36,540 nucleotides of DNA from Ectocarpus siliculosus (Eukaryota; Sar; Phaeophyceae; Ectocarpales; Ectocarpaceae). Both the position numbers and the translations under genes were made by a program. The stretch is from NCBI GenBank assembly GCA_000310025.1, contig FN648817.1:1-36540 (forward strand), given 5' to 3'. Below the pieces are notes generated by a model, which saw only the letters and a list, made by a program, of their open reading frames with translations, was not told the DNA's origin and did no database searches. Positions 16,608 to 36,540 of the stretch are shown piece after piece (position 1 is the stretch's first letter; every line of letters begins with the position of its first letter).

Positions 16608-16612
16608 CCTTC
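16608..16612 (+). repeat. 5-bp target-site duplication, left
   Basis: CCTTC immediately precedes the 5' LTR and is repeated immediately after the 3' LTR at 23903-23907. Five bases is the usual duplication length for copia integrases. Confidence 0.85.
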
Positions 16613-16944
16613 TATTCGATATACTCGTAGCATAGCATGGGGGTGGTATATTGCGTATACATATGCGGGGATTGCAGTGACGAACTACGGAGGGACAAGA
16701 AGTTTCTTTGTGTTTTCCTTGGGAGTGTAGTAGATTGGTGGAGATTCATGGAGATTCGTTCTGGGTATTAAAGCGTTATGCGTGACTTGATGCCGTGATG
16801 GAATGACGAGCTCAAGCACGCCCCCGATGAATACAACACGTTTTTCACCACGTCTACACGTCTTTACCTACCCGTGCGGCCCGTCATGGCCGAGCTGCTC
16901 TACGCTCCCATCACACACAACTGAGCCACCCGAATTATCGATCA
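16613..16944 (+). repeat. 5' LTR, 332 bp
   Basis: Identical to 23571-23902 at an offset of 6958. One extra matching base on each side (C at 16612/23570 and C at 16945/23903) is chance: it belongs to the target duplication, the end of the polypurine tract or the leader. A TATA-like GTATTAAAGC lies near 16765. Confidence 0.92.
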
Positions 16945-17028
16945 CGCTAGCGTATGACACGTCGTCTACGAGATTCGAGTCGAGCTTAGTTTGGAGTATC
17001 GCTTTGCGGCGATCAGCAGCAGCCACCG
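16945..17028 (+). other. Retrotransposon leader; primer-binding site not canonical
   Basis: The sequence directly after the 5' LTR begins CGCTAGCGTATGACACG. It does not start with TGG as expected for pairing with a tRNA CCA end. A primer from an internal or half tRNA, as in some copia elements, is possible but unproven. The polyprotein ATG follows at 17029. Confidence 0.5.
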
Positions 17029-20000
17029 ATGAGCGACACCGAGCAAGATCGAGTGAGCGCCCGACTAGCAGAGGAGGAAGCCCGGATCAACGACTTGGTC
17101 GAACAGAGGGTAGAAGCAAGACTGGCCGAGATGTCGAGGCAAGAAGCAGAGGAGCGGAGGACAGATGACGTCCGGACCGGAAGAGAGCACGAGGATCGCC
17201 ACCAGCAACACGCGGGGCGGCCATCGGCCAACCCGACGACCGACGAAATCGCCCGCACACTCGCCGAAGCCCTCACCGGTCGACTTCACGTCTCATCAGG
17301 GGACATGGGTAGAGTACCCATTAACGCAGGGACGGTTCGAATGACTGAGACTAAGCGCCTAGCGCCTTGGGATGGTGTTTTCAAGCAAGGGGAGGATGAG
17401 CAGGCTAAGTTTTTGATTTTTCGATCGAACATGGTAGCTATGTTTGCCCAGGAAGGAGTGCGTGACGTAGTACTGACAGAAGAAAAAATTCCAGTTGGGA
17501 AAGAAGGCGTGAGCATGGAGGAGATGCGTAGGGTGCATTCGAGTGGACGGGTAGAAAAGGCAATAACGGCGTGGAACCTGCTGATCACGACAGTGACATA
17601 CATGCCAATCCTAACCCAGATCATCGCCGATGGGAGCCCTAGTGGAGGTTGGAAGATATTCCTCAATTATTACGAGCCGCGTGCCAGGGCCGAAAAAGAA
17701 AGGCTGTCATCTCAATATCACGCTCTTGAGATGAAAGTAGGGGAGACCCCGCAAGAGTACTTCGGGAGATTTGCTGTTTTGCGCAGTAGGCTCGCCTCGC
17801 ACGGTGTTGTTTTCTCCGACGATGATGCCAATGCCCACATGGTATACCACCTTTCCGACGAGTACTCGGTAGAGAAGAAGATTCTGACCATGTCACCGAT
17901 TCCCCCCTCGCGCGAGACAATTGAAAAGGCTGTGCGAGATGCTCATGCGGACTCGGTTCGCCGTCGGGAGGGGGAACCGAAGAATGGCGCGGGGCACGCG
18001 TTCGTCGCTTCCGGTGGCATCCGGGGCGATGGACGTGTCCAAAATGGGTCGAGTGGAAACGGCGGGGGTCAGGACGGAGACGGAGGCGCCCGGAGTCGGA
18101 GCAGGAGCAGGGTGAGAGGAAACAAGAAAGGCGGAGGTGAGAGAGGAGCCGACAACGACCACTGCTACCTACATCCGCGCTTGTTCCACACCAACGCCCA
18201 GTGCTACACCCAGCGCGACCGTCGGAAGGAGCAGGAGCAGCAGCAGCCCCAACAGCAGCAGTCTCAGCAACAGCAACCCCAACAGCAGCAGTCTCAGCAA
18301 CAGCAGCCTCAGCAACAGCAGCCTCAGCAACAGCAACTTCACGGACCGCCGCCGCAGCAGCCGAGCTACAGTGGGGGGGGCTGGGGCGGTGGGCCTCAGC
18401 ACGGACCTCACAGCGGCTACGGAGGACAGCATCAGCACAGGTATGCAGCGCCCCCTCGTCCTCCACAACCGCCTTGGCGGCCTCCGTACGGGCACGCTAA
18501 TGTGATGCACGCGTATAGTGCTATGCCCTACGGGGGGCCCGCGAATGGTACCGAGTATGGCGGGTGGGAGCAGCAGCAGCAGCAGCAGCAGCCTTCGCCA
18601 GACTACTACCAGCAGCAGCCGTACTACCCGCCTCCGACACCGTACTACCAGCAGCAGCAGCCACCATCGCAGCCTCCGCCACCGCCGTCGTTTCAGCCGC
18701 AGCAGCAGCAGCACTCCACCCATGCCCCGCCCCAGTCGCCCTCTCCCGGAGCAGCAACCTATCCGCCTGGGCATCTCCACTCCCTGATGGCACACTTTGT
18801 GTCCGCTGACGAGATGAGTTCGCTTTCGGTTTCGAGTGATGTAAGCAGTGTCGCATGTGGTGATGATCTTGGCTTTGCTTTGTCTGCACAGAGTTGCGAA
18901 TACAGTCCTGGTAGGGAGGTATTTTGGTCTGATAGCGGTGCAAGCAACCATTTTGTGAGTAACAGCTCCAAGATGTACAACATCTCGCCTGTCCCCCCCG
19001 GCAAAGAATTCATCAAAGTAGGCAATGGTGCTTATTTGCGCGTGGAGTGCGTAGGTAGTGTCAATCTGGCATTTCACATGGCAGGAGGTCGATCGGGGGA
19101 AGCGGATTTCTGTGTCCAATTGACAGACGTGTACGTAGTACCAGGGATTTCGTTCAACTTGTTCTCTCTGCACCACACGCAGAAAAAGCACAGGATAATG
19201 TTGGATGAGAGGGGTGTGCACCTTTTCGGTGGTCGGCTTAGTTTCGCATACTCGGATATCGGATGCTCTCTATCGGCCACCCGCTTGCCTCCCTCGTACC
19301 GCGACGGTGATGTAATCCCCTCTACCGTTGTCCCTCCCCCCGTTGTCCGCCAAGCGTCTCCGCCTGGTGTTGGTACTGGCCTTTTCGCGCAAAACCCCCC
19401 TCCCCCTTCTCAGATTTCAGGATCGGGTGCAGGATGCGGTCCGAGTTCCAGCTTCCCGTCCATCGGTCCCGCCGGTGTTGTACCTTCGGCTCCGAGCTTC
19501 CCGTCCATCGGTCCCGCCGGTGTTGTACCTTCGGCTTCGAGCTTCCCGCCCATCGGCGCTGCCGGTGTCGTACCTTCGAGTTCGAGCATCCCGTCCACCA
19601 CTTCCGGTGTAGTACCTCCGAGTGATGCTTCCCCGCCTATCGATGTTGATTTAGTGTCTCCGTCGATCCGAGATTTTCAGCCTGCCCTAGCCGCAGCCAT
19701 CGCCTCATCCGACGTCCTGTCCCCCTCAGTCGTGAACCCGAATGTGTCGCGAGAGATAGAGATCATGCCCCTTGAGTCCCAGGATAATTTGCCTTTGATG
19801 GACATGAGTATGTTCTTGGATGTAGGCTTGATGAACGGACAGGACTCGGTCCCGCCGGGTGACTTTTATCCCGACCCATTAGGCGTATGTGAGTCCGTGA
19901 AGCCCCCCGTTGCGTTCGCTGTGATGCAAGATGAGTTGGACGTGCTCAGAGACTTTGTTGTCGAGTGCCGTGTGAAGCAAGATGTAGGTCCCCCCTCCCT

Positions 20001-21846
20001 TTCCCATGCTTTGGCGATTATCGCCCCCGGTGGTCCAGCGTTCACTGTAGGAAAACCCACGTCCACCATCGACATTAATTTGTTCCACGCTTCCACCGGC
20101 CACGTGAATGAATTCTTGATGAGGGAAACCGCAAAGCAGCAGGGTGTTCAATTGGTGGGGGAACTGCAGCCATGCGTCGGCTGCATCGAGGCGAAGGGCA
20201 GGAGGGCCCCGGTGCCGCGGCGTGGAGTCACCCGCGCGGCGGTACCGTTCGGCAAGGTGCACATCGACATCACCGGCCCGTACTCTGAGGCGTTCGATGG
20301 TTCTCGTTACCTGATCATGTTCGTGGACAGCGCGTCGCGGTGGCAACGGGCGTACGGCATGCGGGCCAAGAGCGACACCCTGACGTACACGCGGCGCTTC
20401 CTCGCCAACCTGAACGGCAACGGCACTCCGGGGTGTTTCCGCATGGACAACGGTGGTGAGTTCACCAGTGCTGCCTTCGTCGCGTTCTGCGACGCCGCTG
20501 GCATCCGGCGCGAGTACACCGCACCCGACACCCCGAAGCAGAATGCGGTCGTCGAGAGCGCAATCTGGCGCGCTATGAAGGGGGGCCACGCCGCCCGTCG
20601 CCACGTCCTCTCCATGGGCCACGTCGACCTCGCCTCTATCCCCGGTATGGACGCCAACGGACACCGGCTGTGGCTTGCATCGGCGATCTGGGCCTCCGGC
20701 TGCTTCAACCGTTCCGCGACGTCGGCCAACCCGGCCTGGATGTCGCCGTTCGAGGCCTTCTTCGGACGTAAACCGCCGCTCAACGTCGTCCCTTTTTTCC
20801 AGGAGGGGATGATGCGCGTGAAGCGCGCCAGCAAGGCGGACGTCCAATCCGTGCGTTGCTTCTACATGCACGGAGCGCGCAACCACTCCGCCGCCACTGC
20901 CGTCGTTCTCCGCGCCGACACCGGAAGGATCTGCCTGTCCAACAACGTCGTGTGGATCAACCGCCGCACCGCCGTGCCGGCGCCGGTACCGGCCAGCGGG
21001 GGGGGCTCTTCGGTCACCGCGGCGCCCTCGCCGGCCGCCGCCGTTCCTGCAGCCGCTGCCGCACCGCCACCGCCATGGGCATCGCGGACGTACACCTACA
21101 CCCCGCCCACAGCGACCACCGCTTCGCCGCCGCCCACTTCTCCGTCGATCTTCACAGGGTCCGGAGCCGCGTCGCCGATCTCCACGGCGTCTTCGAGTGC
21201 ACCGCCGTCCACCGCAGCCACGCCGCCCCGTCCACCGCCGACACCCCCGCCCGCAAGCGCCGCCGCTCCCGCTCACCCGCCGCTTTCACAGCGAGCGGTC
21301 AGAGAATTGGGCGAGAAGGAAACCAGAGTGCATGGCCGTACGCGCGGCGACCGAGTGCGCTTCATGGATGAGCAACAGCAACCGCCGTCGCCGTCAGGTG
21401 GCGGCACCGCTCTCCAACACCGCCTTGGGCTGCTGTCGATGATGGGCAAGGATGCGCTCGTCTCGTCGCTCGCCACCCGGGAGGCCGTCGATCAAGGACG
21501 TCGAGACCTGCCACCGTCCGCCAGCATCGCCCCTCCCGCTCCCCCACCGCCGCAAGATACGAGTTTAGCAGGCCATGGGAGCGGGGGGGCCGCAGGAGCT
21601 GGAGGGCCGGGGGGCCTGCACATGTTCGCAGCAATGTTCGCCACCCGCGAGGACGTGGAAGCCACTCTTCGTGGCAAGCGCCCTCCTGACAAGATGCCGG
21701 ACCTCCCTCACTGCCTCGCCAGCGACCTCCGCGTGCCGAAAACGTTCAAGGAGGCCATGCGGTCTCAACATTCAGAGTTGTGGGATGATGCAGTCGGTCG
21801 GGAGTTTTTCGGTCTGTTGGATGCAGGTACTTTTAGTCCGGTGTAG
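17029..21846 (+). CDS. Copia Gag-protease-integrase polyprotein
   Basis: A frame of 1605 codons ends in TAG (21844-21846). Residues about 100-310 are a Gag domain of the copia UBN2 type (for example LSSQYHALEMKVGETPQEY). C379-H382-H387-C392 has zinc-knuckle spacing but His in the second position. Residues about 400-580 are Gln- and Pro-rich, built on CAG tracts. The protease active site is DSGAS at D635. A Ser/Pro/Val-rich linker with 15-residue repeats covers about 800-870. The integrase zinc site is H1020, H1025, C1049, C1052, and the catalytic triad is D1080, D1140, E1176 with the D-35-E spacing. A proline- and alanine-rich segment follows to about 1450, and then the start of the RT region. 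The long linker between protease and integrase is unusual. The ATG is the first in a long open frame 84 bases after the LTR. Confidence 0.9.
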   Translation: MSDTEQDRVSARLAEEEARINDLVEQRVEARLAEMSRQEAEERRTDDVRTGREHEDRHQQHAGRPSANPTTDEIARTLAEALTGRLHVSSGDMGRVPINAGTVRMTETKRLAPWDGVFKQGEDEQAKFLIFRSNMVAMFAQEGVRDVVLTEEKIPVGKEGVSMEEMRRVHSSGRVEKAITAWNLLITTVTYMPILTQIIADGSPSGGWKIFLNYYEPRARAEKERLSSQYHALEMKVGETPQEYFGRFAVLRSRLASHGVVFSDDDANAHMVYHLSDEYSVEKKILTMSPIPPSRETIEKAVRDAHADSVRRREGEPKNGAGHAFVASGGIRGDGRVQNGSSGNGGGQDGDGGARSRSRSRVRGNKKGGGERGADNDHCYLHPRLFHTNAQCYTQRDRRKEQEQQQPQQQQSQQQQPQQQQSQQQQPQQQQPQQQQLHGPPPQQPSYSGGGWGGGPQHGPHSGYGGQHQHRYAAPPRPPQPPWRPPYGHANVMHAYSAMPYGGPANGTEYGGWEQQQQQQQPSPDYYQQQPYYPPPTPYYQQQQPPSQPPPPPSFQPQQQQHSTHAPPQSPSPGAATYPPGHLHSLMAHFVSADEMSSLSVSSDVSSVACGDDLGFALSAQSCEYSPGREVFWSDSGASNHFVSNSSKMYNISPVPPGKEFIKVGNGAYLRVECVGSVNLAFHMAGGRSGEADFCVQLTDVYVVPGISFNLFSLHHTQKKHRIMLDERGVHLFGGRLSFAYSDIGCSLSATRLPPSYRDGDVIPSTVVPPPVVRQASPPGVGTGLFAQNPPPPSQISGSGAGCGPSSSFPSIGPAGVVPSAPSFPSIGPAGVVPSASSFPPIGAAGVVPSSSSIPSTTSGVVPPSDASPPIDVDLVSPSIRDFQPALAAAIASSDVLSPSVVNPNVSREIEIMPLESQDNLPLMDMSMFLDVGLMNGQDSVPPGDFYPDPLGVCESVKPPVAFAVMQDELDVLRDFVVECRVKQDVGPPSLSHALAIIAPGGPAFTVGKPTSTIDINLFHASTGHVNEFLMRETAKQQGVQLVGELQPCVGCIEAKGRRAPVPRRGVTRAAVPFGKVHIDITGPYSEAFDGSRYLIMFVDSASRWQRAYGMRAKSDTLTYTRRFLANLNGNGTPGCFRMDNGGEFTSAAFVAFCDAAGIRREYTAPDTPKQNAVVESAIWRAMKGGHAARRHVLSMGHVDLASIPGMDANGHRLWLASAIWASGCFNRSATSANPAWMSPFEAFFGRKPPLNVVPFFQEGMMRVKRASKADVQSVRCFYMHGARNHSAATAVVLRADTGRICLSNNVVWINRRTAVPAPVPASGGGSSVTAAPSPAAAVPAAAAAPPPPWASRTYTYTPPTATTASPPPTSPSIFTGSGAASPISTASSSAPPSTAATPPRPPPTPPPASAAAPAHPPLSQRAVRELGEKETRVHGRTRGDRVRFMDEQQQPPSPSGGGTALQHRLGLLSMMGKDALVSSLATREAVDQGRRDLPPSASIAPPAPPPPQDTSLAGHGSGGAAGAGGPGGLHMFAAMFATREDVEATLRGKRPPDKMPDLPHCLASDLRVPKTFKEAMRSQHSELWDDAVGREFFGLLDAGTFSPV
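18233..18345 (+). repeat. CAG/CAA-rich tract coding Gln repeat
   Basis: Interspersed CAG, CAA and CCC/CCT triplets in gag code QQQ/QP runs. A second pure (CAG) stretch lies at about 18570-18591, and others lie near 18609, 18650 and 18700. Confidence 0.85.
19450..19616 (+). repeat. 45-bp in-frame minisatellite in pol linker
   Basis: About 3.5 units start at 19450, 19495, 19540 and 19585 and code FPSIGPAGVVPSA-like 15-residue repeats. They lie between protease and integrase. The first two units are nearly identical and the later ones diverge. Confidence 0.85.
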
Positions 21847-23269
21847 CAACCAGTAGAAAACTTCATCAACGCCAAGTGGGTATTCAACTGTAAGGCAGAC
21901 GAGTACGGATGGCCGACGAAATTCAAGGCAAGACTTGTAGCGCGGGGGGACATGCAGAGGGCTTCGATTGATTTTGGAGAATTGTTTGCACCCACCGTAT
22001 CCGTGTCTAGTGTGCGTTTGTTGGCAGCTTTGGCATGTGAGCAGAACCTTGACTTGTGTCATTTCGATATTCAGCAGGCGTTTGTGCAGTCTGAGCTTGA
22101 AGAGGATGTTTTCATGCGTCTCCCGCAAGGTTGTGGTAGGTTATCTGGACTGATCGTGAAGCTATGCAAGAGTCTGTACGGTTTGAAGCAGGCGTCACGA
22201 CAATGGCATGCGCACCTGACGAGGTGTTTGTTACTTTTAGGATTTGTGCAGTGTTTGGCGGATGCATGTGTTTTTCGATTTATGGAGGATGGATGTGTGA
22301 TCATGATCATCGTGGTCCACGTGGAATGACATTTTTGCCGTAGGGCAGAAGGAGAGATGTGACAAGTTTGGCAGAGACCTCAACGAGATGGTCCCCGTGA
22401 AGAACCTTGGGGAGTTGAGGTGGTACTCCGCGTGCTTTTACCAGAGAGATCTAGAGAGAGGCCTTTTGAGGATCTCGCAGCAAAGGTTTGCAGAAGAGTT
22501 GGCTGCAGAGTACGGCGTAGAGTGGGGGAAGAGTGTGCCCTTGCCTGTGAGCATGAAGCTCACCGACTTTGACGAGGACGAAGCGTGTGCTGATGTCCCT
22601 TTCCGCGAGTTGGTAGGATCCCTGATGTGGTTGGCCACTCAAACCAGGCCGGACATCGCGAATGCAGTACGAGCAGTAGCGCGGTATTGCGCGTCTCCCA
22701 AGATGGTGCACTGGAAGGCAGCACTTGGTATTTTAGGGTACGTGCGTAGGACGAGTTGGATGGGGATTACATTTGAGAGGGGTGTGGTGACTGGCATGAG
22801 CATGCAGGTGTTCGTGGATGCTGACTATGCGAGCAAGGCAGCAGACCGTAGGTCGGTTTCAGGAGGACTAGTGATGTGTGGGGGTGGGTGTGTGACTTGG
22901 TTTTCGAGGACGCAGAAGTGCGTTACGCTTTCCACAACGGAAGCAGAGTATGTGGCAATTGCCGACGTCTTGAAGGAGGTGCTTTTCTTGAGGCAAGTTT
23001 GGCGTTTTATGTTGCCAGATGCAGGTATGCCGTGCATTCAAATCTTCGAGGATAATCAGGGAGCGATTCAGATTGCGCACAACCCGATCACGAACTCAAA
23101 CTCGAAGCACATTGATGTACGGCATCACTTTATCAGGGAACTGGTAGAGAGGAAGGAGATTTCGATTACTCATGTGGCGTCGGAGTTTCAGCATGCAGAT
23201 TTCTTGACGAAGGCTATCAGCAAGGAATCTTTTGCGTTGCACAGAGACTTTGTGGTGAATTTGCAGTGA
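21847..23269 (+). pseudogene. Copia reverse transcriptase and RNase H, frame-broken
   Basis: After the TAG at 21844 the same frame continues through NAKWVFNCK, KARLVARGD, FDIQQAFVQS and SLYGLKQASRQWH, the standard copia RT blocks. It stops at 22327-22329. At 22325-22326 (GTGGAATGAC) one A is in excess of what the HVDD active-site motif requires, and the remaining RT and RNase H continue in the next frame to TGA at 23267. RNase H shows Asp in VFVDADYAS, Glu in STTEAEY, Asp in FEDNQGA and Asp in KHIDVRHH, a complete catalytic set. Every domain looks conserved, with no other break, so the lesions are either very young, assembly errors or recoding sites. Confidence 0.85.
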
Positions 23270-23560
23270 CAGAGGTGTTTTGGGATCAAATCGTGCTTTG
23301 CCGTTGAGTGGAAGAGAGAGGATATGTACGAGTTTGAACAAGAGATAGAGAGGGTCAAGTGGAGATGGTAGTGTTTTGGAAGGTTAATGTTCGGGATTTT
23401 TCTTGATGATTTGGAAGAGTTGGTATGCGATTGATTGTTTTTGGAGGTATTGTTTTGGTGTTGGAGTTTTCGATTTTGTCTTGGTTTTGATTTGTTTTGG
23501 GATGAACTGGTATGATAAGGATGACTTTGATATTTTGTTGGAGCATGACGATGCATACGA

Positions 23561-23570
23561 GCAGGGGGGC
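23561..23570 (+). promoter_or_regulatory. Polypurine tract before 3' LTR
   Basis: GCAGGGGGGC directly abuts the 3' LTR start at 23571, the expected position of the plus-strand DNA primer. The 290 bases before it (23270-23560) are non-coding and T/G-rich. Confidence 0.7.
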
Positions 23571-23902
23571 TATTCGATATACTCGTAGCATAGCATGGGG
23601 GTGGTATATTGCGTATACATATGCGGGGATTGCAGTGACGAACTACGGAGGGACAAGAAGTTTCTTTGTGTTTTCCTTGGGAGTGTAGTAGATTGGTGGA
23701 GATTCATGGAGATTCGTTCTGGGTATTAAAGCGTTATGCGTGACTTGATGCCGTGATGGAATGACGAGCTCAAGCACGCCCCCGATGAATACAACACGTT
23801 TTTCACCACGTCTACACGTCTTTACCTACCCGTGCGGCCCGTCATGGCCGAGCTGCTCTACGCTCCCATCACACACAACTGAGCCACCCGAATTATCGAT
23901 CA
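23571..23902 (+). repeat. 3' LTR, 332 bp
   Basis: Identical copy of 16613-16944, ending in CA and followed by the CCTTC duplication. Confidence 0.92.
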
Positions 23903-23907
23903 CCTTC
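23903..23907 (+). repeat. 5-bp target-site duplication, right
   Basis: CCTTC, matching 16608-16612. The pre-insertion site can be inferred as continuous sequence from 16612 to 23908. Confidence 0.85.
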
Positions 23908-24571: not shown

Positions 24572-24767
24572 GGTGGGTACCCACGTGCACCATGGGCAAT
24601 GCCCATGGGTACCCATGGGTACCCATGGGTTGCCACAGACAATGCCCATAGGTACCCATGGGTTCCAACAGACAATGCCCATGGGTACCCATGGGTTACC
24701 ACGGGCAATGCCTATGGGTGCCCATGGTGACTCATGGCCACACACATGGTGACCCATGGGCACCCAA
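24572..24767. repeat. GGGTACCC/CCATGG palindromic lattice, copy 2
   Basis: Perfect 10-bp periodicity (TGGGTACCCA alternating with ACCCATGGGT) runs about 24599-24630. It is followed by units of about 33 bp sharing CAGACAATGCCCAT (near 24636 and 24669) and then degenerate CATGG units. The sequence is its own reverse complement at short scale, so frames on both strands translate to similar MGTHGYPW-like peptides. Confidence 0.9.
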
Positions 24768-25409: not shown

Positions 25410-25480
25410 GCCCATGGGTACCCATGGGTTCCCATGGGGCGTGGGTACCCACGGGTACCCACGGGTACCCATGGGTTGGG
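25410..25480. repeat. GGGTACCC/CCATGG palindromic lattice, copy 3
   Basis: Units of CCCATGGGTA, then GTGGGTACCC and ACGGGTACCC repeat at 10-bp steps. Same family as 6549-6622 and 24572-24767. Confidence 0.9.
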
Positions 25481-26310: not shown

Positions 26311-27370
26311 ACGCGTGTATTTTGAAACATAACATGTGAAAGTCCGGCGTGTCAGAGAGCAGACTACCGGCTGCTCGAAAGCGAGAGAGAGACTGACCTA
26401 AAGCCCTGTGAGAGGCGCAGTTGAACGATGACATGTATTTGTTGTGGTGGATGGGGAGCAGAGGAAAGCGCCTACAAACGTTCCTTCCTCAAGCGGGGAT
26501 GAAATAGCGGGAAAACGGAATGAACATTTTTCAAAACATGAAAGCGGGAAATATGAATCTGCATGTTAAAAAAACTCTACATACTGCTGCGGTGTGGGAC
26601 ATGTGAGAGGGACTGCTGTTGTTGTGTAAGAGGGGAGAGACTGGCGGCACGAAGTAATGTGACGTGTGTGAAAGGGAGAAAGGTTCCGAGCGACCGAACC
26701 GGGTGTGATGAACGAGCCAAACGCAATGGTGAGACATGAGAGAGAAACGGTGAACACAAGAATACAACACCGAGGAACAGATGGAAAAGAGGAAATGTGA
26801 AATAAATGGACCGCTGTGAGAGAGACCGAGAAGACCCGAAATGGAGCCCTCTCAGCGCAGATAGATCCAGACAGACAGAGAGGGAAGCGACAGAGGGTCA
26901 GACCTAGTGCCTCGTGTGAGAGCCGCAAATAAATGTGTGCAGCGGAGGACAGAGCGACAGACGTCGTGTGATCAGAAACACAGAAGGACCGGGCCATCTA
27001 ACCAGTCTATCTCAAAGAGATCGGAATATAAAATAAGCATAGGCTATATAGTGAATACGTGCCTGCGTTTGTTTGGAAGAACCTCTGCTTGGAGATATTG
27101 GATGGACCCGAAGTGAACAGAATTGTACACAACAACCACATGACAACAGAGTTTACAGGCAGCCACGCATGTATTAGACACGCATGCATTTATTGAGAAA
27201 GCACGATGCTGTTCTTTATTGTTCTTACGTGCGCGGTAGTTTGGTGCGACACCGAAGGGGTGGGGAGTCATGCGTCCCGCGCGAGTCCGCAAATAAATTG
27301 GACACGCGCCAAACACGCGCTGGCGACGAGCGCACAGGCGGGTTACCTACACTGTTTGACAACGGACTAA
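26311..27370. other. Purine-rich plus strand, no gene recognised
   Basis: From about 26340 to 27000 the plus strand is markedly enriched in A and G (repeated GAGAGA, ACAGA and GGGA), so the minus strand is pyrimidine-rich. CCGCAAATAAAT recurs near 26923 and 27288. No exon could be supported. Confidence 0.5.
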
Positions 27371-28119
27371 GCTTCCATGGAAGTCAAAATATGCCTCCAT
27401 GGAAGTGGTTCACTGCTTCCATGGAAGTCACGATGGCTGGTCTGGTTCGGGTAGCCAGCTTCCATTACGATTCCATGGAAGCTCATCGAGGTTCCATGGA
27501 AGTGAATCTGCTTCCATGGAAGCAGCCGCTATTTGCTTCCATGGAAGAAGGATTTCGAACTTCCATGGAAGCGCGTAGAGCTTCCGTGGAAGTGACACTT
27601 CGATGGAAGCTCGTCGCTCGACAGAGTCGCAGCAACTTCCAATAGAAGTTGTGCTAACTTTCATGGAAGCACGACAACTTCGATGCAAGCAACTTCCATA
27701 GAAGTCGGTGACAGCGGTCGAAATCAATTTTGATGGAAGCACCGAAACGTTCATGAAAGCAACTTCCATGGAAGGGTCTGGACATGTGTTCACTGCAGCT
27801 TTCGTGGAAGCATTCCAGCTTCCATGGAAGCTGTCGACGAAGACTTCCATGGAAGCTGCGGGAATAACCTTCCATGGAAGTGGTCCACAACACCAAAGCT
27901 TCCATGGAAGTATACGCTAGGGACTTGAAATCTAGAACATCCAGCTTCCATGGAAGTATATCCTGCCCTTCAAGCTTCCATGGAAGTCGCTCTCAGTCCT
28001 CCCGAAGGACTTCCATGGAAGCTTGTTCATGCCATTTCCGTGGGAGAAGGCGTCGAGACCAACCTTGCATGGGAGTTTCCCCATACAGAGTTGTCCAGCT
28101 TCCTCCATCCATGGAAGCG
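27371..28119. repeat. Spaced palindrome array A (CTTCCATGGAAG)
   Basis: About fifteen perfect copies of the core TTCCATGGAA, most within the 12-bp palindrome CTTCCATGGAAG, plus a dozen one- or two-base variants. Spacers of about 10-60 bp do not resemble one another. Copies are often preceded by A or G and followed by T or C. Translated frames show FHGS, SMEV and LPWK repeats in all frames and on both strands, so the array is not coding. Confidence 0.92.
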
Positions 28120-28928
28120 TCGTGTGTCAGGGATATCTACGTGTCCATGTGTGTGTGTACAGTAGCGAAGATCTATCACTCCATGATCGCTGCAGTCAAC
28201 TTAAGTAGTACCCTAGTTACGACATGAAGATTGTGTGTGCACACTACAAGGTATCATGAGCCACACCTAGGTATCAGACGCGTGCAATTTCACGCAGAGC
28301 CAATACCACACGCTGTATGACGCGCGCTCCCGTACAGGGCTGGCAGCGGACGGTCATAATAGTTGTCGGTGAAACCCCAAGGTAGGCGGTCGACTATTCG
28401 GGGTCCCCAACAGTAGGAATTGGGATCCAGAGCTGGCCCATGCGCCTCTCTCCCTCACTCTCATACCCTACCATCAATCTCTGACCTTGGAGTAAGACGT
28501 TAACAACAACATCATCCACAGCTCCCACGGGCGGCATTGTAATAATCGTAATAATCGACTTCCAATCCTAGTTCAAAGAAAGGCAGATCGTTACATGACC
28601 TTAATCATTTCCCTGGAGGGAGCATTTTGTTATAAACGCGTTTGTGGAAAATTCATCTACAACGAGTTCCAGGTTTTCCGTGGATGAAATGTTCCGCAAT
28701 ACCTCTTCCATAAACGCGCGCCTTCTTGTATTTTCCATGGAACAAAATGATCTCACTTGGGACTTTGCGTGTGTGTATACTATGTGTGTGTTTTTATTAT
28801 TAGCATCGACCGCGCTAACCGGCTGACCAATGAGAAGACGTAGTCTAAATCTTAGTGCGGTTGAATACACAAAACTCACTTCTATCTGCCATGAACTGGG
28901 ACCCCGTGAGGGGTCGGCATGGGGGAGG
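28120..28928. other. Spacer, no gene recognised
   Basis: A lone TTTCCATGGAA lies near 28732. The 19-base TAACCGGCTGACCAATGAG at 28816-28834 recurs exactly at 33306-33324, just beyond array B. A minus-strand frame at 28601-28879 is protein-like in part but has no recognised domain. Confidence 0.4.
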
Positions 28929-29582
28929 CTAAACTATCCTTCGGATCAAAGACAGAAACGGTAGCAACATAATACTGCACGCGTCTGTACGAAGGCTATT
29001 ACCTTGTACTCGAGTTCGTTTAGGAGAACTTTCACCATTATCCTCTTTGTTTTCGCTACCATCAATCTGATTATCATTTTGACAACCATATCTTGACAGT
29101 TCTTCCCTAGCCCTGCGTCTTTTGTTCTGGGGAAGGTCGTCTGGCTCAAACCCTTTGCTCTCTTCCACTCCTGCATGTTTCCCTCCTCCATTGTCGTCTT
29201 TGTCCTCCTGTGTTCCCGTGTGTGTGTAGAACAATAAAGCTTCATCGGTGTGGAGGTGATCATGTCCTACCAGTGAGCCGTGGACGAAGAATACACACGA
29301 AGAAGAGGACCCTCCGTAGTTCGCCTCATCCCCGCGGCCTCGCTGTGATGGGTGAAGCGGACTGGGCCGCGGTTCCGTTCGCACGTGGGTAGGTTGGTTG
29401 AAGGGCGAGCGACTAGAAGACCGTCGGTAGCAGATGACGACAAACGCACTCGTAGGGTAGCAGAAGATGGTGTGATTGGTAAAGATCGAGGTAGAGGTGG
29501 GTTTCGGGGGGGGAAGGAACGGGCTGCAGTAGACCCCAATAAATCGTCGGCGCAAATACTGCACGAACGGATACGACGACAC
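28929..29582 (-). CDS. Hypothetical acidic protein, low confidence
   Basis: A frame of 217 codons. The C-terminal half is charged and contains a basic cluster resembling a nuclear localisation signal (PQNKRRRAREELSRYG) within acidic Asn/Asp/Glu-rich sequence. The N-terminal part is not protein-like and may be intron. An overlapping minus-strand frame (29267-29737) carries a Cys-rich stretch, CAVPSCECRR then CSICADDL. A spliced gene using pieces of both is possible. No family is recognised. Confidence 0.22.
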   Translation of the reverse strand: MSSYPFVQYLRRRFIGVYCSPFLPPPKPTSTSIFTNHTIFCYPTSAFVVICYRRSSSRSPFNQPTHVRTEPRPSPLHPSQRGRGDEANYGGSSSSCVFFVHGSLVGHDHLHTDEALLFYTHTGTQEDKDDNGGGKHAGVEESKGFEPDDLPQNKRRRAREELSRYGCQNDNQIDGSENKEDNGESSPKRTRVQGNSLRTDACSIMLLPFLSLIRRIV

Positions 29583-29961: not shown

Positions 29962-31703
29962 GTCCTGATAGACGTAACTGTCGTCAGATGTGTGCGTCCA
30001 CGGCATGAAGTTGGTGTGATTGCGAGGGGCACCGCAGGTGGAATATCAGCTGTTCTTGTTGCAACTGACTTTGTCCTGCGGCAGTCTGTCGCCAGCTACA
30101 TGTGGTGTCGGCTGCCGGCGCCTGGCAGCATCTCCCACTCAGTTAGCCTCCCGCTGTTCTGGTTTCGACGGTATCTCTCGCTGTCGCCTAGCGGCCGCTC
30201 TCTGTCGGTCCACCCGTGGCCTGTGTTTTGTGTGTTTACATTATTGCCATGGTTTTGGAAGCCGCCGACAACAAACGATGGTCTCCCGCAAGGTGGCCAT
30301 CTGTATACCATCAAGTGTCGCGGTCATTGGTCGAGTTTCGACATGCGATGTCCCTTACCTTGTCGTTGTTGGAGCGGAACATGCAGATAGGTACCACCGG
30401 CCTGTGGCTTGTAGGGATGTGTTGGGGATGGAATGTACTTAGCAACCCCGGGTTCCGTTGGACCCCTGCCAATTAGGGCTCCAAGGATAGTATCTTGCGG
30501 TTCTGAGTTCTTGATCGGTTGTTTTGTTTGTCCGGTGTCACGTGTCGAACGGGAGCGATGGGCTTCATAGTTGTTTGTGTTCTTTGTTCGTTTCTCCTTT
30601 GGTCCTGGCAGTCGCCAGAAGACCGTGGTGATACTTGTTGTGAAGACATTTGGCGATTCGCCCTTCAACCTCTTCTGGTGCATTGCAGGTGGAAACGATG
30701 TTACGGCCTGTCAAGAGCCATATTTTGGTTTTCAATCTAGGGTGTTCTCTGCGAACCCATTTGCCTTCAATACCGTGTGCTTGAGCTGATTCCGATGCAA
30801 GATGCCTTGGGTAGTGATGAATGATTGATTGAGGTCTTCCTTGCTTTGAGTGGAAATGGAAAAGGCACAACGCCAGGTTTTGCGCCACCAAATCATTGTC
30901 AAAGCTTGCTTTGTCGCACGCTCTGGCAAGTTTCGTGGTATGACGGCGTGTGCCTGCTTCTTCTATGACCACGCCTCCGCATCCCACCAGTCCCATGAAG
31001 AAAACTTCCTTCGCCCCCGATATTGAGCGTGCAATGAAAGAACAGTGTTTTTGACAAAAAATTCCCGCCAAAAGTTGAGAACAAAGGTTTCAAACCTATG
31101 TAATTTTTTCTCGCAACTAAATGCTCCCAAAAAAAAACGGTGAAATAGGTGACCAGATCGTCAAACGTTACCACCCTATGGTTCGGGCATCGGAACGGGG
31201 GCTAAAGATTAGGACCCCTGGGAATCAAATAGGGGCCTCTAGTTTCGTGCGCGCATGTCCTGCTATCGATTGCCATTTTGTTGCTACGCGTTGGAACAGA
31301 TCGATACTTCGAGCTTTTTTTACCATCTTCCTGGAATGAACGTGAATAATACTGTCTGTCCGCGATCCGCGGATAATGTACACATTTATTTCCGATAATA
31401 CACAGTTTCTACATTATTACCTTGAACATAATAGCGCGGGGAAAAACAAACTGATTGTCTCGTCAGTCGTCGTGTTTTGGAACATCATGACTTCGTGTCA
31501 CAGCAACGAACACGTCGCAGGGTTTTCAACTTCTTCTGAGAAGGGTTGTTGCGGACCTCAAACAACCACAGACAATGTTACATTTTGGAGATTTCCCGAC
31601 AGGACCTCTATCGTCTTCTACTGATTTCCCCTGAATGAACAGCTTCTTCGTCTTCTACTGATTGTTCCATCCCTCAAACGCTACGAAATAATACGTGCCC
31701 ACT
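29962..31703. other. No gene recognised
   Basis: Several 70-170 codon frames occur on both strands, but none has motifs, splice-phase chains or convincing composition. The largest (30565-31071, minus) is not recognised. Confidence 0.35.
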
Positions 31704-33274
31704 GCTTTCATGGAAAGTTGTGCTGCTTCCGAGACGGCAGTTCTCTTCTTCCGTGGTGCTTCCGTGGAAGTTGACACACATTACATCCCCATCTACAATA
31801 CTCTCATGTAATAAGTGCTTGGGCTGGTTTCATGGAAATTTTCCATCTTCCGTGGGAGTTGACAGAGAGAGATCAACTTGGCCTTTTTCATGAAAGTTGC
31901 CGAGTTTCCATGGAAGTTGCCTAGAAATCGAGACGAACTCTTCCACGGAAGGAAGTTGCTCTCTCTCATGGAAGTAGCTCAATGCTTCCATGGAAGTTGA
32001 TGTCCAGTTGTCACAAACACTTCCATGGAAGTTGCTCTCATGGAAGTAGCTCTCATGGAAGTAGCTTGCTTCCATGGAAGTTGCTGTCCACTTGCCTAAA
32101 ACACTTCCATGGAAGTTGCTCTCATGGAAGTAGTATGCTTCTATGGAAGTACCTTCCAGTTTAGTGGCAGGGGTCGATGGACGGACTTCCATGGAAGTGC
32201 ACTTCCATGGAAGCTCGATGGTCCTTCCGTAGAAGTTGCAGACGAGACTTCCATGGAAGCAACCACCCCTGATTCCATGGAAGCTCCATCTACATCCATA
32301 AAAGTATCTCATACTTCCGTGGAAGTCGCGTGGAAGTTCGGTGGTGATTTCGCGCAACAGCTTCCACGCGGCTTCCGTGGAAGAAGCTTTCACTTCAATG
32401 GAAGTAGATGGAGCTTCCATGGAAGCGAGGCGAGCTTCCGTGGGCTTCCATGGAAGTAAACATTTACGTCCATGGAAGTAGAATTTGACTTCCATGGAAG
32501 CGTGTCCCATATGTACAATGGGCACCTGAAACAGTCATCATCTCGTTCTACCACCAGATCCGACTTCACACGAACATGCGACGTATGTTTCTTCCTTCCC
32601 CAGTTAAAAAACAGGGCCAAGGGTGGATCCCCCCGCTTATGGTAAGGTGGGAAAACCTGCCATGGAAGCTGAGACACGCGGAATACAATCTACTCCTCCT
32701 CCCGTCATGCTACCTACTGTACCATGGTTGACTTCCACACCTGGAGCGGAGAGTAGGACGAGTGATGATGTACTTCCATGGAAGTATCGCCATGACATCT
32801 GTGAACGTTCCCATGGAAGTCGCTCCTGAATACTTCCATGGAAGCTTGGGGCGGGTGGCGTACTTCCATGGAAGTATCGCCACGATTCGTTTGGACAGCT
32901 TCCATGGAAGCCGCATATTTTGACTTCCACGGAAGCTGGGGTCGGGTGGTGTACTTCCATGGAAGTAGAGCGATGATGCTTCCATGGAAGCTAGATATTA
33001 TGCTTCCATGGAAGCTGTCTGATTATGGCCTACTTCCATGGAAGCACGTGGAAGTGGGTGTAATCGATTTCCATGGAAGCGCTCCAAACTACTTCCATGG
33101 AAGCTACCAAACTTCCATGGAAGCTTCAGCTTCCATGGAAGTTGTTGCTGACCCCCCAGCTATGTGAACTTCCACGGAAGTCGCCCACACTTTGATGGAA
33201 GTCAGTTTCGAGCTTCCATGGAAGCTGAAATCAATGAACTTCCATGGAAGTAAACATCTACTTCCATGGAAGCT
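31704..33274. repeat. Spaced palindrome array B (CTTCCATGGAAG)
   Basis: About twenty-seven perfect TTCCATGGAA cores and many near copies, densest at 31980-32500 and 32765-33272, with a sparse interval at 32510-32760. Spacers are mostly unrelated to each other and to array A. A local sub-repeat TCATGGAAGTAGC occurs three times near 32038-32130. Confidence 0.92.
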
Positions 33275-33340
33275 ACACACATATGGACAGTAATGTAGAG
33301 GACTGTAACCGGCTGACCAATGAGTTTGTATTGGTATGTG

Positions 33341-33362
33341 TGAGAGAGAGAGAAAGAGAAAG
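33341..33362 (+). repeat. GA microsatellite
   Basis: GAGAGAGAGAGAAAGAGAAA-type tract directly after array B. Confidence 0.85.
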
Positions 33363-33774
33363 GATTCACAGTGTTTGTGCAATAAGCTGTGTGATCGGTT
33401 GTGCTATTTTCTATGTGATCCTTCGTGCCCGTCCAGATTGATACCTTTTGTACCCTGCACGAGGTACAACTCGTTCTGTGTGTGTTGTTCTTACGGAAGA
33501 ACACAAAAAAGGGCCGTTACGCATTTCAACTATGTCGCAATTGCACACACGCTCACGCACCAACGCACTTTTCTGCTCGTGATCTATCGCTCTCCCTCTG
33601 ACGACCAGCAGCTCTCGCCCGGTGAAGCTATGGCCTGCTTAGAGACTCCCTCTCTCCGCGCCTTTGGCTGCGCCGGGAGTGAGTCTGTTTGCGCCTCTGC
33701 CCGCTGTCTGCCCGCTGTATGTTTGTCGCTGTGCCCGCTGAGCTTGTGTTGTCTGCTGTGCGTGGGTTCTGCAG

Positions 33775-33840
33775 CTGCAACAGCTGCAATCTGCTGTGTG
33801 GTCACGTGCGGTCCGACCCCGACGCCCTGTTGAAAATCAA
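33775..33840 (+). CDS. Candidate 66-nt exon at the edge of the satellite
   Basis: The segment is bounded by a pyrimidine-rich acceptor (GGGTTCTGCAG) and a strong donor (GTGAGG at 33841). One frame reads CNSCNLLCGHVRSDPDALLKI, with CxxC and CxxH spacing. A possible preceding exon (about 33600-33672) ends before GTGAGT at 33680. If both are real, the 116-bp satellite that begins 18 bases later would lie in an intron. The strand and frame are supported only by splice signals and composition. Confidence 0.28.
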
Positions 33841-33857
33841 GTGAGGCACTCTAAACC

Positions 33858-36540
33858 CCATTGGTGGACGTCGCGGAAGCGCTTGGGTTCATTCTAAGGA
33901 AGTTGTGAAAGTGAAGTGGACTTCCACGGAAGCTGACGGGGTGCATCATTCGTCCAATAATGTAGCATATGAGACGCCATCGGTGGAAGTGAAGGAAGCG
34001 CTATAGGTCAGTCTACGGAAGCTGTGGAAGTGAAGGTGACCTCCATGGAAGCTGGCGAGAGGGTCATTTGTCCAATAGTGTAGGGTGAGACGCCATTGGT
34101 GGAAGTGAAGGGAGCGCTATAGTTCAGTCTATGGAAGTCATGGAAGTGGAGGTGTCTTCCGTGGAAGCTGTCAAGAGGATCATTGGTCCTATAGTGTAGG
34201 GTACAATGCCATTGGTGGAAGTGAAGGGGGTCCTCGGGTTCATTCTACGGAAGTCACGAGAGTGGAGGTGACATCCATGGAAGTGTCAAGAGGATCATTT
34301 GTCCAATAGTGTAGGGTGAAACGCCATTGGTGGGAGTGAAGGCAGCGCAATAGTTCAGTCTACCGAATAGATAGGTGGAAGTGAGGCGGACTTTCATGGA
34401 AGTTGTCAGAAGCGAGCGCTGGGGTTCGATATACGGAAGTGTTGGAATTGAAGTGGACTTCCATGGAAGCTGACTAGATGCATTATTCGTCCAATAGTGT
34501 AGGGCGAAACGCCATTGGTGGAAGCGAAGGGGGTCCTTGGGTTCATTCTACGGAAGTCACGAGAGTGGAGGTGACATCCATGGAAGCTGTCCAGAGTATC
34601 ATTGGTCCTATGGTGTAGGGTGAAATGCCATTGGTAGAAGTGAAGGGGGCGCTATAGTTCAGTCTACAAAAGTCGTGAAAGTGAGGTGGACTTCCATGGC
34701 AGTTGTCAAGAGGATCATTTGTCAAAAAATGTAGTGCAGGGTGAAACGCCATTGGTAGAAGTGAGGGGACCGCTTGAGTTCAGTCTACAAAAGTCATGGA
34801 AGTGAAGTGGACTTCCATGGAAGTTGTCAGGAGGATGATTTGTCCAATAGTGTAGGGGTGAAACGCCATTGGTCGAAGTGAAGGGAGCTCTAAAGTTTAG
34901 TCTTCGGAAGTCATGGAAGTGGAGGTGACTACCACGGAAGCTGTCAAGAGGATCATTTATCAAATAGTGTAGGTTGAGACGCCATCGGGGGAAGTTAATG
35001 GAGCGCTTGGGTTCAGTCTTCGGAAGTCATGGAAGTGGAGGTGACTTCCATGGAGGCCGACGAGGTGGATCATTTGTCCAATAGTGCAGGGTGAGACGCC
35101 ATTGGTGAAAGTGAAGGGAGCTCTAAAGTTCAGTGTTTGGAAGCCATGGCAGTGGAGGTGGCTTCCATGGAATCTGACGAGATGCATCATTCAAACTAAC
35201 AGTGTAGACTGGTGGAAGTGAGGGGAGCGCTCGGGTTCGTTATACGGAAGTGCTGGAATTGAAGTGGACTTCCATGGAAGTTGACGAGATGCATCATTCG
35301 TCCAATAGTGTAGGGTGAAACGCCATTGGTGGGAGTAAAAGGGGTCCTTGGGTTCATTCTACGGAAGTCATGAGAGTGGAGGTGACATCCATAGAAGCTG
35401 TAAAGAGGATCATCTGTCCTATAGTGTAGGTTGAATCGCCATTGGTAAAAGTGAAAGGAGCGCAATAGTTCAGTCTACGGAAGTCATGGAAGTGAAGTGG
35501 ACTTCCATGGAAGTTGTCCGGAGGATCATTTGTCCAATGGTGTAGGGTGAGACGCCATTGGTCGAAGTGAAGGGAGCTCTAAAGTTTAGTCTTCGGAAGT
35601 CATGGAAGTGGAGGTGACTTCCACCGAAGCTGACGAGATGCATCATTCAAACCAACCGTGTAGCCTGGTGGAAGTGAGGGGAGTGCTCGGGTTCGTTGTA
35701 CGGAAGAGGTGGAAGTGAAGGTGACTTCCATGGAAACTGACCAGATGCATCATTCGTCCAATGGTGTAGGGTGAGACGGCATTGGTGGAAGTGAAGGGGG
35801 CGCTTGGGTTCAGTCTTCGGAAGTCATGAGAGTGGAGGTGACTTCCATGGCAACTGACGAGATGCATCATTCAAACGAAGAGTATAGGGTTAAACGCCAC
35901 GGTGGAAGTGAAGGGAGCGCTATTGGTCAGTCTACGGAAGCCATGAGAGTGGACGTGACTTCCATGGAAGTTGTCAAGAAGATCATTCGTCCAATGGTGA
36001 AGGGTGAAACGCCGTTGGTGGAAGTGAAAGGAGCGCTTGGGTTCAGTCTATGGAAGTCATGGAAGTGAAGTGGACTTTCATGGAACTGGTCAAGAGGATC
36101 ATTGTCAAATAGTATAGGTTGAGACGCCGTCGGGCGAAGTGAATGGAGCGCTTGGGTTCAGTCTTCGGAAGTCATGGAAGTAGAGGTGACTTCCATGGAA
36201 GCTTTCAAGAGGATCATTTGTCCAATAATGTAGGGTGACACGCCATTGATGGTGGAACTAAGGAAAGCGCTTGGGTTCAGTCTACGGAAGTGGTGGAAGT
36301 GAAGTAGACTTCCACGGAGGCTGACGAGGTGCACTATTCGTCCAATAATGTAGCATGAGACGCCATGGGTGTAAGTGAAGGGAGCGCTATAGTTCCGTCT
36401 ACGGAACGGAAGCTGTGGAAGTGAAGTTGAACTCTATGGAAGCTGACGAGAGGATCATTTGTCCAATAATGACGGGTGAAATGCCATTGGTGGAAGCGAG
36501 GGGAGGGCTTGGGTTCGTTATTTGGAAGTCATGGAAGTAC
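33858..36540. repeat. About 116-bp tandem satellite carrying the same palindrome
   Basis: Units of about 115-121 bp are phased by GCCATTGGTGGAAGTGAAG, at 33976, 34092, 34208, 34323, 34511, 34627, 34748, 34865, 34981 and 35098. They continue to the window end, giving at least 20 units. Each unit holds GGAAGTCATGGAAGTGGAGG, a CTTCCATGGAAGCTG-type palindrome and CATTTGTCCAATAGTGTAGG. One interval (34323-34511) is longer and contains a truncated unit. Sequence identity between units is moderate. A period near 117 (3 x 39) keeps long minus-strand frames open, which explains the Thr/Ser/His-rich ORFs there. Confidence 0.93.

What the first reader, a model, noticed from the sequence alone, without database searches (positions are those of the whole stretch)
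27371..28119. Short palindromes spaced by unrelated sequence (array A)
The 12-bp perfect palindrome CTTCCATGGAAG recurs about fifteen times in under 750 bp, with non-homologous spacers. Ordinary tandem duplication would copy the spacers as well. Conserved units with variable spacers point to one of three things: selection or a copying process acting on the 12-mer itself, short targeted insertion of the motif, or decay of an older satellite that spared only the palindrome. It is CRISPR-like in layout only; nothing suggests CRISPR function.
Basis: partly seen in the sequence, partly recalled or inferred. Interest (0 to 1): 0.85.

Follow-up and report, generated by a model that had tools for sequence, protein, structure and literature searches.

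The report
Transposon ends packed with palindromes
The row of identical 12-letter palindromes is one end of a family of jumping DNA elements scattered through a genome that looks like a brown alga's; the palindromes look like docking sites for a protein that moves or controls the elements, a known type of arrangement in an unusually dense palindromic form.

Summary
In detail: 27371-28119 holds 13 exact and 21 near-exact copies of CTTCCATGGAAG, with spacers no more alike than shuffled ones. It is not local. The 12-mer has 1,212 sites in the 189-Mb genome against 6 for a reversed control, clustered in copies of a DNA-transposon family. The array starts 7 bp after a terminal inverted repeat (TIR; core 162 hits, many in satellites, control 0). 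Ten paired-TIR elements, nine of them 0.85-1.04 kb, show 8-9 bp target duplications. A second arrayed unit (30246-33305) inserted into the first; two 96-99% identical contigs show the empty site. The 117-bp satellite at 33853-36538 repeats TIR plus palindrome. So spacers are copied, as part of an element. In two long subfamilies, and between consensuses, the motif changes less than spacers; in short elements it decays equally. Mutations do not preserve pairing (5 of 215 double mutants), favouring a dimer's binding site over a hairpin. Best model: subterminal binding arrays, as in CACTA or hAT elements. Transposase and superfamily remain unidentified.

The parts
27340..27364 (+). Left terminal inverted repeat ('G end', GGGTTACCTACACTGTTTGACAACG) of the long element A
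   Evidence: Core CCTACACTATTTGACAAAT, 3 mismatches here; 77+85 genome hits at 2 mismatches or fewer, many of them satellite units, 0 for the reversed control; copies at C296, C25 and others begin within 27332-27345
27372..28117 (.). Array A: 13 exact / 21 near-exact 12-bp palindromes, subterminal array of element A
   Evidence: 99% copies at C70, C144; 77-81% copies at C296, C74, C30, C25
28118..30245 (.). Internal part of element A, shared with C144 and C70 in full, with C74 and C30 to 29587, with C296 to 29460
30246..33305 (.). Element B: 3,060-bp unit inserted into element A; 14 bp of target lost, no target duplication seen
   Evidence: Empty site in C144 (L018:4703/4718) and C70 (L019:2724/2709); 96% copy at C42 with the same ends
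31705..32500 (.). Array B1 of palindromes, with an 84-bp tandem duplication; at C12 (L020) the homologous block ends in its own TIR
32773..33272 (.). Array B2 of palindromes; the six best copies outside the window (C12 twice, C42, C76, C16, C1; 86-91%) all end at 33305-33306
33282..33305 (-). Right end of element B: sister TIR CAGTCCTCTACATTACTGTCCATA read on the minus strand
33306..33852 (.). Continuation of element A to the right of insertion B
   Evidence: C144 96%, C70 97%; part 33552-33820 also at C74 and C30
33853..36538 (+). 117-bp satellite inside element A; the unit carries a palindrome and a TIR copy (ATTTGTCCAATAGTGTAGG)
   Evidence: related TIR-bearing satellites at C144, C70, C30 (about 116 bp) and C74 (75-89 bp), and at C2 (117 bp)

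Best explanation
The array is the subterminal region of a TIR-flanked DNA transposon. SHOWN: short copies with both TIRs (D end GATCTCCCACACTATTTGACAAAT, G end GGGTAACCTACACTATTTGACAAAT) lie between 8-9 bp target duplications; palindromes fill both subterminal blocks; long relatives (homology blocks spread over 11 kb in two copies) carry array, internal DNA, TIR-bearing satellite and a gene-like region; an arrayed unit has inserted at a new site. INFERRED: a dimeric DNA-binding protein (the element's transposase or a TnpA-like accessory protein) binds RCTTCCATGGAAGY; many sites raise its local concentration at the ends, helping synapsis and cutting at the TIR and perhaps regulating the element. 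Only lineages that keep the sites keep moving, so the motif stays while spacers drift in the source lineages; once inserted, short copies decay neutrally.
For: 12-mer 1,212 vs 6 control. TIR core 162 vs 0 (includes satellite units). Target duplications: longest shared flank word averages 7.7 bp in 10 true pairs vs 3.9 bp in 90 mismatched pairs; 0 of 2,002 permutations reach it. Empty sites for element B in C144 and C70, 14 bp lost in the window. Motif vs spacer mismatch to leave-one-out consensus: A set (6 copies) 2.6% vs 6.8%, lower in 6 of 6; B2 set (7) 1.6% vs 8.7%, lower in 6 of 7; short elements (15) 6.6% vs 6.9%, lower in 8 of 15. Consensus A vs consensus of short elements, first 590 columns: motif columns 95.8-97.4%, spacers 78.5%. 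Double mutants symmetric in 5 of 215, close to my rough expectation of 6-7 if unlinked; single mismatches are commonest at the outer and central bases, leaving TTCC..GGAA. Outer bases are R...Y, with A.C 114, A.T 112, G.T 110, G.C 72, i.e. no pairing. Precedent: CACTA elements with 19-23 copies of a 12-bp subterminal motif (passages, PMC8978399) and TNPA binding subterminal repeats (passages, PMC2613891).
Against: No transposase is linked. The two MULE matches near arrays belong to a family also found without arrays (5 of 45 matches were read). The DUF7869 gene beside the C296 array belongs to a separate insertion, since 5 other copies share its boundary and have no motif in the stretches read. 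KDZ and CACTA Pfam models gave nothing, but the tool warns this does not show absence. Fragments of the gene-like region (C144 only) match no transposase model, and codon-position tests are weak or flat. Element B left no target duplication and lost 14 bp, which is not canonical cut-and-paste. B2 spacer divergence is inflated by one misaligned copy, L024 at 40%. Alignment favours matching motifs, so the motif/spacer contrasts may be overstated; the short elements show none. No protein binding was measured.
Confidence: 0.82

Rival explanations
1. A host DNA-binding factor, not the transposon's own protein, binds the palindromes, and the element recruits it for expression, silencing escape or chromatin.
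For: Two families with different TIRs (A: CCTACACTATTTGACAAAT; B: CTCTACATTACTGTCCATA) carry the same palindrome, and no transposase was found.
Against: The two TIRs look alike by eye, so the families may simply be sisters sharing one binding protein. In the fetched loci the motif clusters in repeat copies; sites at host promoters were not examined.
Confidence: 0.15
2. Passive leftover: the palindromes come from an old amplified satellite and have no present role; only their copying inside transposons keeps them frequent.
For: In 15 short copies the motif decays at the spacer rate. Tandem duplications exist in B1, B2 and the 117-bp satellite, whose unit keeps several GGAAG half sites.
Against: Spacers of array A are unrelated; motif columns are more conserved than spacers between subfamilies and within A and B2.
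Confidence: 0.12
3. The palindromes act as single-strand hairpins or cruciforms (fold-back replication, RNA structure).
For: Perfect 12-bp palindrome.
Against: No loop is left in a 12-bp perfect palindrome. Double mutants are symmetric in only 5 of 215, and the flanking R/Y bases do not pair. No Rfam match in the window at gathering scores.
Confidence: 0.03
4. CRISPR-like spacer array.
For: Layout of repeats and unrelated spacers only.
Against: 12-bp repeats, start-to-start distances from 14 to over 60 bp, eukaryotic genome, whole array copied with its spacers.
Confidence: 0.005

Closest known systems
CACTA (EnSpm) transposons with subterminal repeats, e.g. Spm/En, soybean Tgmt*, Chenopodium Jozin
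   Same: TIRs plus several hundred bp of closely spaced copies of a short (12-bp in Jozin and En-1) motif; giant and deletion-derived forms; TNPA binds the motif in Spm/En (passages)
   Different: Here the motif is a perfect palindrome, CACTA lies inside the TIR rather than at its end, the target duplication is 8-9 bp rather than 3, and no CACTA transposase was found
hAT elements (Ac/Ds, Hermes) with subterminal transposase-binding repeats
   Same: Short repeats near the ends bound by the transposase (listing and abstract starts only); 8-bp target duplications (recalled)
   Different: hAT transposase was not searched for; hAT motifs and TIRs were not compared
Mutator-like elements (MULE)
   Same: Target duplication near 9 bp and G-starting ends (MULE features recalled)
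   Different: The MULE copies read here are not part of the arrayed elements
Giant and unclassified DNA transposons of Ectocarpus (KDZ, EnSpm, Sola-1; DNA/Unknown)
   Same: Over 10 kb, nested insertions, genes without transposase homology, 51 unclassified DNA families (passages, PMC12477816)
   Different: The main text has no 'palindrom' or 'subterminal'; its consensus library was not available, so this family may already be listed there without comment

Membership tests
TIR DNA transposon (class II, cut-and-paste) | Terminal inverted repeats at both ends | tested here: met
   17 short loci examined, 11 gave a TIR pair, 1 (L035) judged spurious, 10 used
TIR DNA transposon (class II, cut-and-paste) | Fixed-length target site duplication | tested here: met
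   Shared flank word 5-11 bp, mean 7.7 vs 3.9 in mismatched pairs; best length 8-9 by eye, several imperfect, L029, L033 and L040 unclear. The B insertion in the window shows none
TIR DNA transposon (class II, cut-and-paste) | DDE transposase in an autonomous member | tested here: inconclusive
   None linked
CACTA / EnSpm | Element ends with CACTA and 2-3 bp duplication | tested here: not met
   CACTA is preceded by conserved GGGTAACCTA or GATCTCCCA; duplication 8-9 bp
CACTA / EnSpm | Dense subterminal short repeats | tested here: met
   23 and 25 exact motifs in the two subfamily consensuses
MULE | MULE transposase carried by the family | tested here: inconclusive
   45 PF10551 matches; 5 read: the two near arrays are about 95% copies of the three array-free ones; 40 not inspected, though C1 has no exact 12-mer near its two matches
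KDZ | KDZ transposase | tested here: inconclusive
   PF18758: 0 matches, but also 0 in all 14 controls
hAT | hAT transposase, 8-bp duplication | not tested
   Transposase not searched; duplication length 8-9 cannot exclude it
CRISPR array | Uniform spacer length and longer repeats | tested here: not met
   Distances 14 to over 60 bp; 12-bp repeat; eukaryotic genome with EsV-1-7 family. cas genes were not searched for

The most novel reading that the evidence does not exclude
A transposon lineage whose ends, and nearly the whole body of its short derivatives, have become a lattice of about 25 identical dimer sites at preferred distances (20-22, 24-25, 30, 35 bp), bound cooperatively by a dedicated non-transposase protein, possibly the gene carried beyond the satellite, which also drives the birth of a 117-bp satellite from TIR plus palindrome. 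That would be a visible step from transposon end to satellite DNA.
Probability: 0.12. Interest if true: 0.7.

Novelty: new variant of a known kind. Interest (0 to 1): 0.42.

Why it matters
It replaces a puzzling 'palindromes with random spacers' pattern by a testable object: a transposon family with over a thousand presumed binding sites, short and giant members, an insertion with its empty site, and a satellite made of its own TIR. In my view the proteins that read subterminal motifs are little known outside plants and a few animals; most Ectocarpus transposon families were described as unclassified before a 2025 survey (passage, PMC12477816).

Tried and rejected
KDZ and CACTA transposase models: no match, uninformative by the tool's own control. 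MULE: two matches near arrays looked promising; they are one family of about 95% identity with three copies that lack motif and TIR in the 3.3 kb read. DUF7869 gene next to the C296 array: first taken as the transposase; rejected because 5 other copies are 98-99% identical up to the same boundary and have no motif in the 0.6-2.8 kb read beyond it. Of 12 DUF7869 matches, 8 were looked at; C106:144520, C2, C33 and C125 were not. C23 has a match about 5 kb from an array; not resolved. Pfam on 49 of the 133 open frames of 130 aa or more (window and 19 loci): one copia gag and two weak hits. Codon-position signal: weak in C144/C74, flat on average for C144/C2, although C144, C74 and C2 share a C-terminal frame and stop by eye. 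The C144 fragments match no family; a Beta_elim_lyase match at E 3e-4 is below its cut-off and not used. Predicted duplication at the far end of the C144 element: not found; the 10-mer at C144:9178 is also in C74 and is not a duplication. My first motif/spacer test overstated conservation because it picked intact motifs; one search corrects for this. Spacing periodicity (about 4.8 bp) rests on partly homologous arrays and is only a lead. Paper searches: the 12-mer as text occurs in one paper, on bermudagrass, by its title unrelated (listing); DUF7869 in none.

Full report
WHAT IS THERE. The interval 27371-28119 contains 13 exact copies of CTTCCATGGAAG, 21 with at most one mismatch and 24 with at most two; 500 dinucleotide shuffles average 0.002 at one mismatch or fewer. 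The 17 usable spacers are no more alike than shuffled spacers (13 of 60 shuffles reach the observed mean). More copies lie at 31705-32500 and 32773-33272, and about one per unit in a 117-bp satellite at 33853-36538.

GENOME-WIDE. The window is C268:1-36540 of a 189.5-Mb, 492-contig genome. The 12-mer has 1,212 sites, the reversed control palindrome 6. The EsV-1-7 cysteine motif family has 150 listed matches (880 candidates, 150 scored) and none in 14 control genomes (the controls named elsewhere are prokaryotes, so this is a weak control); that domain has proliferated in brown algae (passage, PMC12477816), so I take the host to be a brown alga. The species is not established.

THE ARRAYS ARE MOBILE. 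Array A has two 99% copies (C70, C144; possibly segmental duplicates or unmerged alleles) and many 68-81% copies, several beginning near window 27332-27345. Array B2's six best copies outside the window (86-91%; C12 twice, C42, C76, C16, C1) all stop at window 33305-33306, while the DNA from 33306 on matches other contigs. Comparing C144 and C70, 96-99% identical to the window on both sides, shows that 30246-33305 is an insertion: they lack it, and the window has lost 14 bp of the site. The 14 bp are also present in a 51-bp repeat at 28787-28837, so the empty state is the older one.

ENDS. Short relatives of array A share an inverted repeat with core CCTACACTATTTGACAAAT: 77 forward and 85 reverse genome hits at 2 mismatches or fewer, many of them satellite units, and 0 for the reversed control. 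One end reads GATCTCCCACACTATTTGACAAAT, the other GGGTAACCTACACTATTTGACAAAT. In the window the second form occupies 27340-27364, 7 bp before the array. Of 17 short loci, 11 gave a TIR pair; L035 was dropped as spurious. Among the 10 left, nine are 0.85-1.04 kb and L044 is 1.4 kb. Their two flanks share words of 5-11 bp, mean 7.7, against 3.9 for 90 mismatched pairs, and 0 of 2,002 permutations reach the true sum. This is a target duplication of 8-9 bp, imperfect in several copies; L029, L033 and L040 show little.

LONG MEMBERS. C144 and C74 share homology blocks spread over 11 kb from the left array, past the satellite, to a region with exon-like frames on the minus strand. That region also occurs at C404, C25, in part at C83 and, at 70%, C2. 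At C2 it lies between a 117-bp-period satellite and a D-end TIR. The order G end - array - internal - satellite - gene-like region - D end is therefore pieced together: the last end was seen only in C2, whose array and G end were not read. The C2 satellite has drifted to CTTCC(A/G)(C/T)GGAAG-type sites. The satellite unit contains both palindrome and TIR, so it looks like amplified element end.

CONSTRAINT ON THE MOTIF. Against leave-one-out consensuses the motif differs at 2.6% vs 6.8% for spacers in six long copies, 1.6% vs 8.7% in seven B2 copies (one misaligned copy, L024, inflates the spacer value), and 6.6% vs 6.9% in fifteen short copies. Between the consensuses of the long and short subfamilies, motif columns agree at 95.8-97.4% and spacers at 78.5%. 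I read this as selection in the moving lineages and neutral decay after insertion; alignment bias towards the motif could account for part. Single mismatches are commonest at the outer and central bases (positions 1, 6, 7, 12), sparing TTCC..GGAA. Only 5 of 215 double mutants keep the palindrome, and the R...Y flanks do not pair. These features fit a site read by a protein dimer, not a folded strand.

MECHANISM. Most likely: a dimeric transposase or helper protein binds the subterminal sites and brings the two TIRs together, as TNPA recognises the subterminal repeats of Spm/En (passages, PMC2613891); Chenopodium CACTA elements carry 19-23 copies of a 12-bp motif at their ends (passages, PMC8978399). 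The element is nevertheless not a CACTA element by its ends or its duplication. Binding, synapsis and regulation are inferred, not shown.

WHAT IS MISSING. No transposase could be tied to the family; the MULE and DUF7869 leads that lay beside arrays were traced to separate families or insertions, except one at C23 left open; KDZ and CACTA models were uninformative, hAT was not searched. Element B's ends are asymmetric and its insertion lost 14 bp, so its mode of movement is open; a B-family relative at C12 (L020) has two sister TIRs and flanks sharing GAGTGAAA (read by eye).

IN PRINT. The 12-mer as text appears in one paper, on bermudagrass, by its title unrelated (listing). The main text of the Ectocarpus transposon survey (abstract, passages and one methods section read) does not use 'palindrom' or 'subterminal'. 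Its library was not available here, so the family itself may be listed there. Two wider paper searches (listings) showed no description of this arrangement in their titles or abstract starts.

Noticed in passing
16612-23903: Copia-type LTR retrotransposon (gag, integrase core, Pol_BBD domains) with 334-bp LTRs that are 100% identical, so a very recent insertion.
   Followed up: partly
24602-24727 and 25411-25476: Two arrays of another palindrome, CCCATGGG(TA), sharing the CCATGG core; short elements L029 and L033 sit beside CCCATGGG repeats. Possibly a second family with its own palindrome.
   Followed up: no
consensus of the short elements, printed: The centre of the short elements holds a telomere-like (CCCTAA)n stretch between the two palindrome blocks.
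   Followed up: no
C296:19149 onward; C206, C94, C362, C365, C106: A recently moved element with a DUF7869 gene (motifs MMDGANQSNFVVP, VQVDNTVAENKNNY, MVGHTHIQIDQIFS, DDE-like by eye), 98-99% identical copies, one inserted in an arrayed element. DUF7869 is in no held paper.
   Followed up: partly
30826-31152 within element B: A separate dispersed repeat, about 40 weaker matches at 64-89% identity.
   Followed up: no
28787-28837 and about 30235-33325: 51-bp direct repeat, the second copy split by element B; region 28784-29217 is also found inverted beside B2 copies at C76 and C16.
   Followed up: no
array distances: Start-to-start distances cluster at 20-22, 24-25, 30 and 35 bp and avoid values between; arrays partly homologous, so significance is uncertain.
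   Followed up: partly
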